Below, one piece after another: positions 51,887 to 56,141 of a DNA stretch of 64,000 nt. The DNA lies in assembly GCA_015143295.1 (NCBI GenBank), contig CM026573.1:3135950-3199949 (forward strand). Direction: 5' to 3'. This stretch comes from Tetracentron sinense. Taxonomy: Eukaryota > Streptophyta > Magnoliopsida > Trochodendrales > Trochodendraceae. Numbering within the stretch: the first letter of the stretch is position 1; every line of letters begins with the position of its first letter. The notes beneath the pieces were generated by a model, which did not search any database, had not been told where the DNA came from, and saw nothing but the letters and a program-made list of their open reading frames with translations. Made by a program: the position numbers and the translations under genes.

Positions 51887-53421
51887 TGAAATCAGCTAAT
51901 TTCATTGTCAAATCATGTTCATTGCCAAATTTTGTATGAGGATTTGTGTTTGGAGTTTGAGAAATTGGAGGAAACCAATGTTGTCAGAACCGGCCGATCG
52001 AACCGGTAAAATCTATTGGGTCCTGAGTTGATTGAGCAGATCGCAGATAGGGTCAAAATCATTCGAGAGAGATTTAAGACAGGCCAGGATCGACAGAAGA
52101 GTTATGCCGACACTCGCCACAAAGACTTGGAATTCCAGGTCGGTGATTGAGTCTTTGTGAAGATTTCTCTTAGTCGGAGAATCATGAGGTTCGGCAAGAG
52201 GGGGAAGCTTAGCCCGAGGTATGTGGGACCTTTTGAGGTGATCACACGCGTCGAAGAGGTCGCTTACAAAGTGGCTTTATCTCCTCACATAGCGGCAGTC
52301 CACAATGTCTTTCATATTTCCATGCTTCGGAAATATGTGTCAGACCCTTCGCATGTTATTGATCTTGATCCAGTGGAGATTCGAGAGGATCTCACGCTAG
52401 TGGAGCAACCGGGTCAGATATTGGATCGTCGAGATCAAGTCTTACGTATCAAGACGATTCCACTAGTCCTCAAGAAGTGGCAACACTATTCTGCGGCGGA
52501 AGCTACCTGGGAACGCGAGGCTGAAGTGAGAGAAAAATACCCTCATCTGTTTGAGCAGTACTTTGATAATGTATGTAAGGTTGGTTGTTTTGTGTTTTTC
52601 CATGTATGTCAAATCATTTTAATTTCGATGACGAAATTTCTGTAAGGGGAGGGGAGGATGTAGAACCCCGGATTTCACCTTCATAGCCTGTGAATAGTGC
52701 TGTGAATAGTATTTTTTTGCACTAGGTATGTTAAGCCAAGGTCGTTTGTGTGACCTTGGTATTTGAGTTATGAAATGATGATATTTGGTAAGATTCTAGG
52801 TCTGGGTTGTGACACACGTGTGTAGGTGATTAGAGCGAAGATATTAAGTACCCTAGTTGAGCTATGGAGTTAAGCAAAGAGTGTGAAAATACTTTAAGTG
52901 TTAAAGGTGGGAAAACGGGAGAAATACAGGGAACCGGTTGACTAATAGTCCCTACCGGTCGACCGAACAAGCTTAATTTTGAATGAGTTTTTCAGGTAGA
53001 GAGGGGTCTTTTGACCGGTTGACCGAACCTCTCAATCGGTCGACCGGTCTAGGCTATTTTGCCTTGTAGCCGACCTCCTGAGATCTTTTAAGGGTGTTAT
53101 AGGGTTTTGGCTCACCTCAAACCCCTATATAAACCCCCATTTTGTGGCTTAGGGTTCTTCGAACCCTAAGAGGAAGTTTTTGGGAGAAAGTTAAAGAGAA
53201 AGAAAGAGAGGAAGGAGAAGAAGAAAGAAAAGCTTGGAGGCTTTGGTTTGAGTTGATTTTCTCAACTAAGAAGGTGTTCCTTCTCATTTCTTGAAGCTTG
53301 AATCTTTCTTCAAGGATTCCTTGTGAGGTTTTAGGTTCTTCAAAAGGTAACTACACTTTACTAACTAGCATAGCCTAAACTTTATACTATCTACCTTGAT
53401 TGTTGTCATGTTTGGAGCAAT

Positions 53422-53800
53422 CATTCTTAACATCCAGAAAACTGCCAAATAAAATGCGTCCCAAGCCGAAATATCACAAGTACCACCTCGTCCCGGGCCG
53501 TCGCAAGGAAAACTATAACCGAAATCCTTTTTATCTGGCATTAACTTGGAACCACGTGCATCTAAAGCACCTTTTACTAAGATCAATGTAGTTGTATGTA
53601 AACCTAGAGCAATAGCATGATGAACCAAGAAGTCTCCAGGGCCTATTGTTAAAAATAGTGAATTACTATTCTCATTAATAGCATTGAACCAGCCAGGCAA
53701 CCATATGCTTCGACCCGCATTGAATGTTGGGCCATTCGTTGAAGATAAAAGTACATCAAACCCATATGAAGTCTTACCATGAGCAGATTGTATCCATAGT
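53422..53800 (-). pseudogene. psaB: psaB fragment (photosystem I P700 apoprotein A2)
   Basis: The minus strand reads [71 protein letters not shown] and [16 protein letters not shown]. This is about 125 residues from the interior of PsaB, including the conserved [13 protein letters not shown] loop that binds the FX iron-sulfur cluster. The reading frame is almost unchanged, so the transfer is fairly recent. It cannot make a working protein. Confidence 0.92.
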
Positions 53801-53944
53801 TAAGGGTTTCAATTGGAGAAAGTCTCGGCGAGACTGGTCGTAGTTAGAATGCTTTGAATGTAATTAAATCAGTATTGGGAATTTTCCACCTTCTGGGGTT
53901 GAGCCGGTTATTTATCCCTTTCTCAAACTGGAAATCAATTTATA

Positions 53945-54120
53945 ATGTTCAAAAATTATAGATCCAATGTCACATTCAGTAAATATTTATGATACATGTA
54001 TAGGGTGTACTCAATGCGTACGAGCCTGCCCCACAGATGTATTAGAAATGATACCTTGGGACGGATGTAAAGCTAAGCAAACTGCTTATGCTCCAAGAAC
54101 AGAAGACTGTGTAGGTTGTG
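53945..54120 (+). pseudogene. psaC: psaC fragment (photosystem I iron-sulfur subunit)
   Basis: Starts [20 protein letters not shown] and reaches [10 protein letters not shown], i.e. the first ferredoxin-like CxxCxxCxxxC cluster motif of the 81-residue PsaC; it then leaves homology. About 20 bp of plastid leader (AAAATTATAGATCCAATG) is also kept. A few replacements (Lys6 to Asn, IAS to TAY) differ from the usual sequence. Confidence 0.92.
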
Positions 54121-56141
54121 TAATCTTAAAGAGTTGTTGTGATCTTCTCTGCTTTCCTAGAAAGTGGAATTCCTAATCCGCTTGCTACCCGAATAACTGA
54201 CTTTACTACTAGTACTTTGTCCAGAACCCGGGAGTTCGTCCAGCTGTGCCGGGAAGCAGAGCGAACCCAATATAGTCTTTCTCCCGCACAAGTCAACTAT
54301 GAAAAGCAAGCAAAGAGATCGACTTGTCTTTGTTGCTCTCCATCCATTCTATCTAACCTATGCTAGTAAGCAGAGAAGAAACTACCTTTTGGCTTCTTCA
54401 ATAGTTTAAATGCTATCGCTTGATGTTCTCTCAAGCTAAACTATAGTATTATTGAGTTGTTCTTGAATGAAATGAATTGATGAAGTTGGATGGTTTGTAA
54501 GCTATCACTATTTTGAAATCTCTATGCCTATGATTTTATGTTTCAAAGACTTCTAAGTATAGTATGATATTCACAAGCACTCTATGCACTTTAAGGTTTC
54601 TAAGTGCTCTAAGGTTTACATGTATCGCATGACTCTATGGTTTCTCATAAGTGCGGTTTATTGAAGCATTCATAAGGATTTCTAATAACTCACAAGCTAC
54701 TAAGCTCATAAGCATTGATAAAGCCAAACATTGGGTTGGTCAAGGGTAGGGTATATCCAAGGATATATCATACCTAATTCAAAGCAATCTCATAAGACAT
54801 TGTGATAAAGCCAATGGGAAGATTGGTCAAGGATCTTGGCAGCCCACTTCGATGTATTCAATGAAGGGTATTCATATACCCAGTTCTAAGTCTTTTTACG
54901 AGTGCTAAGGTTTGGCTCTAAGTTACACTTATCAGATCTCATAAGTGAATGCTCACAAGCTCATAAGTGCTCTAAGTTTCTACGGCTCATAAGAACTCTA
55001 AGGATCTCATAAGAACTCCAAGGAACCCAAGGAACTCATAAGACTTGATTCTCATACGCTCATAAGACTCATACTATTTTGGATTTAATAAGAAACTCAT
55101 AAGGAAATGGTTTTGGAATTAGCATGGGTTTTCACGGATTTCTATGCTCTATGGCTCTATATCTCACATGCTCCATGATCTTATTATCTCATTGTTAGTT
55201 AGTAGTTTGTAGACACTGAGTATTTCATGCTCAGTCATGCATGTTATGTCGGCAGGTGCACGTGTTTTGTGGTTCGGAGCCTTGGATAGAGGAAGAGTAC
55301 TACGAGCCGGAATCTACTATGGATCATTATCAGGATGAGGGAGTACTAGATGGGCGGCCTGATTTTGACTTTTGCTGACCGAGCTAGGAAGAGAGATTTG
55401 TGTATGTTGAGAGTGAGACTTGTCCACTCCATCTTTTTTTATATGTTTTGTTAGTTCAGACTTGAACCTAACGATAGGAGTACTTTATTATAAATTGTTT
55501 CCGCTATGTGTATAACTTGTGTACTCTGACAAGATGGTATGTATGCCTTATGTGTCATACAGGATGGTATGATACGGCGGTCACATGCTCAGGTATCCTA
55601 ACTCCTATGGGGTATTTTGGGTCGCAACAGGAACCGGTCCCCTCACCGGTTTTCAAAACCCTCAAAATCGGAAACAATTAAGAATTGTCTATTTTTTAAA
55701 GAACCGGGGAACCCGACCGGTTGAACAGGTAGAACCGGTACCCGATTCGCAGAACCGGGTAGTTCCATTCTGAGTTCCTGTTGCTGTTTTCCGATTTGAT
55801 TTCCAGCCAAATGGTCGGAAATTTTTTATTAAAAAAAAAACTTTAAAACGTAGGGTTTTCTAATCTTTACATATAAAAAGGTTTAGGTTTGGGTGTTTTT
55901 AAAGAAGAGAAATTGAAAAAAAGTTCTTCTGTTTCTATCTTCGCCACCACCAACATCATGAATACCAAGAAGGCTCGGTTGTGCCACTACGCTGGCTTTG
56001 CATGATATTTAAGGGAAGATACTTTAGTTTGGTGTGAAATTTTACGAACTGGTTGAACGGTCCGGTCAGATCGGTCAAACCAGGAACCGGTCACCCAAAC
56101 AGTTCGATGCCCGGTTCGGTTTTAAAAATATTGTAGGAAAC

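What the first reader, a model, noticed from the sequence alone, without database searches (positions are those of the whole stretch)
51968..56141. Three-layer nest: hAT element, gypsy 3' end with LTR, organelle DNA inside the LTR
A hAT element with an 8-bp target duplication (7/8) is interrupted by a gypsy fragment whose LTR is in turn interrupted by about 1 kb of organelle DNA. The unoccupied hAT site is preserved at 34809-34836 in a paralogous unit. This gives a relative order: host unit duplication, then hAT, then gypsy, then organelle DNA.
Basis: partly seen in the sequence, partly recalled or inferred. Interest (0 to 1): 0.75.

Follow-up and report, generated by a model that had tools for sequence, protein, structure and literature searches.

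The report
Organelle-DNA patchwork in nested plant transposons
A small plant DNA transposon was broken by a piece of a retrotransposon, which was itself later broken by a 1-kb patchwork of chloroplast, mitochondrial and other DNA; the layers are real and their order can be read, but each is a known kind of event.

Summary
The nest is real, and its junctions can be placed almost to the base. A 542-bp non-autonomous hAT (51976-52013 + 55630-56133; 8-bp target duplication, 7/8) sits in a host repeat whose unoccupied form survives at 34732, 45533 and 45633. Inside the hAT is a 5'-truncated chromodomain gypsy (52014-55629) that ends exactly at its 3' LTR terminus.

hAT relatives that align across the join show that the hAT lost at most 1 bp and gained no target duplication, although this LTR family makes a 5-bp one (exact in 11 of 21 distinct LTR copies examined). 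The fragment was therefore probably captured as a truncated cDNA, rather than integrated whole and deleted later.

The LTR is split at 53398/54421 by 1,022 bp (not 986). The insert is a mosaic: mtDNA (~29 bp), plastid psaB (371, antisense), a piece otherwise found only on C3 (136), plastid psaC (183, sense), mtDNA (88), and a piece shared with C17/C18 (209). No other copy of the mosaic turned up in the assembly. Such mosaics are published as 'numins', attributed mainly to end joining. The LTR comparison it proposed (46970-48966) fails, because that sequence is unrelated. Ordinary plant-genome history, unusually well resolved.

The parts
51968..51975 (.). left target-site copy of the hAT (GAGGAAAC)
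   Evidence: sequence; single copy in empty paralogs
51976..52013 (+). left part of non-autonomous hAT, incl. TIR CAATGTTGTCAGAACCGG
   Evidence: alignment with 22 relatives
52014..52658 (+). 3' end of gypsy internal region (5'-truncated at 52014), ending in a purine-rich tract (GGGGAGGGGAGGA)
   Evidence: homology of other copies starts here in the window; tract seen
52151..52642 (+). open frame, end of gypsy polyprotein: Tf2-1-like SH3 and chromodomain
   Evidence: Pfam PF24626 E 2.2e-22, PF00385 E 1.7e-06
52659..53398 (+). gypsy 3' LTR, part before the insert
   Evidence: TGTAGAACC start as in other copies; junction
53399..53428 (+). mosaic piece 1: mitochondrial-like; 53400-53428 matches C1478:653661-653689 at 27/29; 53399 unassigned; last 2 bp shared with the psaB piece
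53427..53797 (-). mosaic piece 2: plastid psaB, codons about 462-585, antisense to the LTR
   Evidence: PF00223 E 1.6e-58, PDB PsaB chains, junctions
53798..53933 (.). mosaic piece 3: source unknown, one other copy found (C3:310443-310578, 131/136)
53937..54119 (+). mosaic piece 4: plastid psaC leader and codons 1-51 (96.2% to plastid contig C1479); 53934-53936 is 3-bp filler
54120..54207 (+). mosaic piece 5: mitochondrial, 86/88 to C1478:738127-738214
54208..54416 (.). mosaic piece 6: source unknown, 95% to two tandem copies on C17 and, in part, C18; 54206-54207 (CT) shared with piece 5
54417..54420 (.). 4-bp filler CGCT at the right junction; with flanking bases it matches the 8 bp just upstream of piece 1 in mtDNA
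54421..55629 (+). gypsy 3' LTR, part after the insert, to its terminus
55630..56133 (+). right part of the hAT, incl. right TIR
56134..56141 (.). right target-site copy of the hAT (TAGGAAAC)
   Evidence: sequence
34732..34855 (+). unoccupied paralogous hAT site
45533..45703 (+). two further unoccupied paralogous sites in tandem

Best explanation
A record of four successive events in a plant nuclear genome. (1) A short host segment was duplicated locally (shown: four paralogs). (2) hAT transposase inserted a ~542-bp non-autonomous element into one copy, making an 8-bp duplication (duplication and empty sites shown; transposase inferred). (3) A 5'-truncated gypsy cDNA, carrying the end of the integrase with its chromodomain and a complete 3' LTR, was joined into the hAT: the 3' LTR end is the natural terminus, the other end is broken, there is no target duplication and at most 1 bp of hAT is lost. 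Junction anatomy shown; one-ended integration or end-joining capture of cDNA at a break is inferred. (4) A later double-strand break in that LTR was closed by end joining of six DNA pieces: plastid psaB, plastid psaC, two mtDNA pieces and two pieces of unestablished origin (composition shown; mechanism inferred from the blunt, 2-bp-overlap and short-filler junctions, and from published mosaics).
For: hAT TSD and three empty sites; 8-bp TSD at 8/8, 7/8 and 7/8 in the 3 of 4 examined relatives whose two ends lie in the fetched stretch. hAT relatives bridging the gypsy join: L081 reads GGTAAAATC-GGGAAC where the window reads GGTAAAATC|gypsy|GGAAC (L081 has GAACTGGTAAAATC, the window GAACCGGTAAAATC). 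Of 25 LTR rows (21 distinct copies) 13 rows (11 copies) have exact 5-bp TSDs, so the lack of one here means something. Uninterrupted LTRs: 14 of 29 printed copies read ACCTTG|TGAT. Mosaic pieces and junctions. No row or 24 other than the locus itself spans two adjacent pieces by more than the 2 shared bases at 54206-54207.
Against: No reads or related species could be examined. Pieces 3 and 6 have no organelle match in the held contigs (at least one stretch of C1479 is withheld), so an organelle origin of the whole insert is not shown. In one search two psaB copies (C11 at 85%, C17 at 82%) extend 8-9 bp over the piece 1/psaB border; I read this as chance likeness (psaB there also has CAAT; compare C10), but those two loci were not fetched. 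Step 3 could still be full-length integration followed by a deletion whose left end happened to fall at the target site. The genome search drops very common words and scored only 40 of the candidates in its larger DNA searches (40 of 68), so absence of a second copy of the mosaic is not absolute. The right-hand host homology at the empty sites is short.
Confidence: 0.85

Rival explanations
1. The gypsy inserted full length with a 5-bp duplication and a later deletion removed the left target copy, the 5' LTR and most of the internal region.
For: Internal deletions and solo LTRs are a usual fate of plant LTR elements (established knowledge); LTRs standing alone between 5-bp duplications are found for this very family.
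Against: The deletion would have had to stop, to within a base, at the left edge of the target duplication: hAT left ends ...GGTAAAATC, relatives continue GGGAAC, and the right side keeps GGAAC. I see no microhomology at 52013/52014.
Confidence: 0.2
2. The insert arrived as one piece of mitochondrial DNA that already contained plastid-derived (MTPT) and nuclear-derived pieces.
For: Plant mtDNA commonly holds such pieces (established knowledge); two of six pieces, including the first, match the mitochondrial contigs.
Against: In C1478 both mt pieces continue on both sides into other sequence, not into the neighbouring mosaic pieces; the same holds for piece 5 in C359 (piece 1 there was not fetched). 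They lie about 84 kb apart in both contigs.
Confidence: 0.12
3. Assembly artefact or organelle contamination.
For: No reads seen; organelle-nuclear chimeras occur in assemblies.
Against: The three comparable pieces differ 2-7% from the assembly's own organelle contigs; the psaC piece has three amino-acid changes against the PDB chain aligned; the LTR is continuous on the two sides of the insert.
Confidence: 0.03

Closest known systems
Numins: mosaic mitochondrial-plastid insertions in plant nuclear genomes (Portugez, Martin and Hazkani-Covo 2018, PMC6215612)
   Same: Adjacent plastid and mitochondrial fragments joined at blunt or short-microhomology junctions at one nuclear site; the paper reports numins as up to 10% of organelle insertions in nine plant genomes, and NHEJ signatures at 1,128 of 3,206 (35%) mixed junctions (abstract, discussion section and found passages read).
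   Different: Here the pre-insertion site is known from intact LTR copies, so the outer junctions can be read too; two pieces are of unestablished origin.
DSB repair by capture of retrotransposon sequence (mouse zygotes, PMC4516963; search listing and start of abstract seen only)
   Same: Retrotransposon-derived DNA captured at a break.
   Different: There induced breaks in mouse; here an old event in a plant, one end at the natural LTR terminus.
Plant non-autonomous hAT elements with 8-bp TSD
   Same: CA..TG ends, 8-bp TSD, many relatives (897 first-look candidates, of which 40 were scored and matched, one being the locus itself).
   Different: No autonomous partner was looked for.
Chromodomain-bearing Ty3/gypsy elements (chromoviruses; name recalled)
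   Same: Chromodomain after the Tf2-1-like SH3 domain, next to a purine-rich tract and LTR.
   Different: Only the 3' end is present; clade not assigned.

Membership tests
hAT transposon (non-autonomous) | 8-bp target-site duplication | tested here: met
   7/8 here; 8/8, 7/8, 7/8 in three relatives
hAT transposon (non-autonomous) | short TIRs starting CA | tested here: met
   CAATGTTG... / ...ATATTG; relatives mostly CAGTGTTGTCAGAACCGG-like
hAT transposon (non-autonomous) | mobilised by a hAT transposase | not tested
   no transposase gene sought
Ty3/gypsy chromovirus | chromodomain at integrase C-terminus | tested here: met
   PF24626 and PF00385 in 52151-52642
Ty3/gypsy chromovirus | LTR TG...CA next to polypurine tract | tested here: met
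   GGGGAGGGGAGGA|TGTAGAACC ... GCAACA
Ty3/gypsy chromovirus | 4-6 bp target duplication at integration | tested here: not met
   family makes 5 bp (11 of 21 distinct copies); none at this copy; so it is a fragment of such an element, not a standard insertion
Numin (mosaic NUMT/NUPT) | adjacent plastid and mitochondrial fragments at one nuclear site | tested here: met
   psaC|mt junction 54119/54120 and mt|psaB at 53427-53428
Numin (mosaic NUMT/NUPT) | blunt or 1-7 bp microhomology junctions | tested here: met
   blunt at 53797/53798 and 54119/54120; 2-bp overlaps at 53427-53428 (TT) and 54206-54207 (CT); but 3-bp filler at 53934-53936 and 4-bp filler at 54417-54420

The most novel reading that the evidence does not exclude
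The mosaic was a circle before it entered the chromosome. The 4-bp filler at the right end, together with its neighbours (ATCGCTTG), is the 8 bp that lie directly upstream of piece 1 in the mitochondrial contig, so the two ends of the insert may be the two sides of one mtDNA site opened at CTTG, a tetramer that the LTR target also has (CCTTG|TGATG). That would be integration of a circular plastid-mitochondrial chimera by a single microhomology crossover, with small errors (4 extra bases left, 2 lost right).
Probability: 0.1. Interest if true: 0.5.

Novelty: new member of a known kind. Interest (0 to 1): 0.25.

Why it matters
Here every pre-insertion state (host, hAT, LTR) can be read from other copies in the same genome, so two DNA-capture events can be described to within a base or two at their outer junctions. 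That is useful for the questions of whether truncated retroelement cDNA is captured without full integration and of where plastid and mitochondrial pieces meet before they enter a chromosome. Effects on genes were not examined.

Tried and rejected
LTR at 46970-48966 as a relative: rejected. Rfam scan of 51600-56500: 0 matches at the gathering scores. The first piece of the insert was thought to be unplaced filler until the pattern search found it in C1478 (11 places with up to 2 mismatches, the window itself among them; reversed-pattern control 0). Reading pieces 3 and 6 as organellar: not shown. Piece 3's only other copy found lies in a C3 stretch (L071) whose translation seemed to me by eye to resemble a copia polyprotein (not scanned). 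Piece 6's other copies lie in a tandem duplication on C17 (copies about 4.5 kb apart), with a shorter match on C18 and a 39-bp one on C11. Circle model: the 8-bp match was noticed after the fact; in a crude null from 3,504 positions of two short mitochondrial stretches, 14 windows reach 8 (0.4%), the windows at the true place being included, before any correction for looking. Absolute dating: left out, no substitution rate for an unnamed plant; and psaB could not be compared with the plastid contig.

Full report
Setting. The window is C23:3135950-3199949 of a 1.16-Gb assembly of 1,479 contigs. C1479 (164,449 bp) carries psaC flanked by what I read from the sequence as ndhG, ndhE and ndhD and is taken as the plastid genome (these gene names are recalled, only PsaC was searched). 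C1478 (856,059 bp) and C359 (907,582 bp) both have COX1 matches without stops (profile positions 141-288 and 1-288) and both mitochondrial pieces at the same spacing of about 84 kb; I take them as mitochondrial, with the reservation that C359 could be a nuclear copy. The host species was not identified.

Layer 1, host. The left flank of the hAT matches window 45533-45626 (86%), 34732-34816 (80%) and 45633-45696 (84%), and the 45-kb copy is colinear with the 51-kb one further upstream: 45297-45386 with 51165-51258 and 45490-45533 with 51398-51441. With the flanks joined and one target copy removed, a search of the whole assembly had 4 candidates, all scored, and 5 matches, all in this window: two are the locus itself; the other three (34732-34835, 45533-45645, 45633-45703) run 19, 17 and 7 bp past the insertion point (alignment). 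So the right flank is alike only over a short stretch (about 25 bp by eye at the 34-kb site). The three sites show a single GAGGAAAC, GAGAAAAC and GAAAAAAC and, by eye, no excision footprint, as expected of never-occupied sites.

Layer 2, hAT. The element is 38 + 504 = 542 bp without the insert. Relatives mostly begin CA(A/G)TGTTGTCAGAACCGG or close to it; 22 of them (L081-L095 and L074-L080) were aligned across the first ~90 bp and across the join. Four relatives were looked at for both ends: L078 has an 8/8 duplication, L076 and L073 7/8; L074 does not show its right end in the scan. The left end of L073 (CACTATTTT) departs from the others and was written into that scan's pattern.

Layer 3, gypsy. 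In ten rows from nine loci aligned at the break, homology with the window starts at 52014 (52016 in two rows), and their upstream sequence (mostly ..GAGAGAAAGG or close to it) is replaced by hAT sequence in the window. The frame 52151-52642 holds a Tf2-1-like SH3 domain and a chromodomain, followed by a purine-rich tract and the LTR start TGTAGAACC. The LTR ends at 55629, as in many other copies. In one search, 58 loci were examined; 25 rows had both LTR ends in the stretch, which are 21 distinct copies because four pairs of loci overlap; 11 distinct copies have an exact 5-bp duplication (two of them, L064 and L066, with the same flanking bases and so perhaps one event), one has 4/5, five are preceded by a purine tract and so are 3' LTRs with internal sequence attached, and four (L030, L033, L036, L065) have no exact 5-bp duplication. 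Thus the family makes 5-bp duplications. At this copy there is none: hAT relatives read GGTAAAATCGGGAAC (L081) and the window has GGTAAAATC before and GGAAC after the gypsy. Not all relatives carry a TAAAATC-like segment, so the count of lost bases (0 or 1) rests on those that do (for example L081, L087, L090). Inference: a truncated linear cDNA was joined, by its intact 3' LTR end and by its broken end, at one place. A full insertion followed by a deletion ending exactly at the target site remains possible (I give it 0.2).

Layer 4, mosaic. In 14 of the 29 LTR copies printed, ACCTTG is followed at once by TGAT; the window has 1,022 bp in between, with no loss of LTR sequence relative to them. 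Five of these (L020, L029, L038, L049, L057) share with the window the shorter form of the sequence just before. The pieces in order are: mitochondrial, 27/29, C1478:653661-653689; plastid psaB, 371 bp, residues about 462 to 585, antisense, no stop in the frame; a 136-bp piece with one other copy found, on C3 (2 candidates, both scored, one being the locus itself); plastid psaC from shortly before the start codon to codon 51, sense, 96.2% to C1479; mitochondrial, 86/88, C1478:738127-738214; a 209-bp piece with two copies on C17 at 95% and part on C18. The inner junctions are blunt at 53797/53798 and 54119/54120, have 2-bp overlaps at 53427-53428 and 54206-54207, and carry 3 unassigned bases at 53934-53936; one base (53399) and four bases (CGCT, 54417-54420) remain at the outer junctions. 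Apart from the locus itself, none of the rows covers two adjacent pieces beyond those 2 shared bases. In one search, two weak psaB matches (C11, 85%; C17, 82%) reach 8-9 bp over the border with piece 1; I take this for chance likeness of psaB itself, which the C10 copy shows, but did not fetch the two.

Age. The three comparable organelle pieces differ from present organelle contigs by 2-7% (psaC 3.8% with a gap, mt 2.3%, and 2 of 29 for the short one), while among the eight LTR copies measured the nearest differ by 9% on the left part (L011) and 11-12% on the right part (L019, over 969 bp; L010). Since LTR differences accumulate on two branches and organelle ones mostly on one, the figures are compatible with the mosaic being younger than the gypsy but do not prove it; nesting does.

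Literature. Mosaic plastid-mitochondrial insertions in plants are published and named numins (PMC6215612; abstract, discussion section and found passages read). Five paper searches were made; none was aimed at showing that this particular nest is unpublished, and I make no such claim. That paper calls the place where DNA of the two organelles meets unknown and mentions circular episomes in diatoms as one possibility; the circle reading in the section on the most novel reading is mine and weak.

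Noticed in passing
window 51442-51881: About 440 bp, AT-rich, with partly inverted halves, absent from the otherwise colinear 45-kb paralog (45490-45533 continues at once into 45533-45626): a probable MITE beside the hAT, hence a further insertion in the same host unit.
   Followed up: partly
L075 (C6:24865300-24866400), shortly after position 503: Another hAT relative that breaks off and continues TGTAGAACC..., which looks by eye like the start of a related LTR: perhaps a similar nest elsewhere.
   Followed up: no
L002, L003 (C17:31272187-31279907): A tandem duplication with copies about 4.5 kb apart, 97% alike, holding two copies of mosaic piece 6.
   Followed up: partly
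C359 (907,582 bp): Carries COX1 and both mitochondrial pieces at the same spacing as C1478: a second mitochondrial contig or a very large nuclear copy.
   Followed up: no
L064 and L066 (C7, about 96 kb apart): Two LTRs with the same 8 flanking bases on each side, perhaps one insertion duplicated with its surroundings.
   Followed up: no
window 45533-45703: The host unit is itself doubled in tandem here.
   Followed up: no
window 5993-7408 +; 23938-24684 +; 41945-42379 - and 42814-43239 -; 62778-63263 -: Bromodomain/BET frame, TLC-domain frame, amino-acid transporter pieces, and a retroelement Pol_BBD frame.
   Followed up: no
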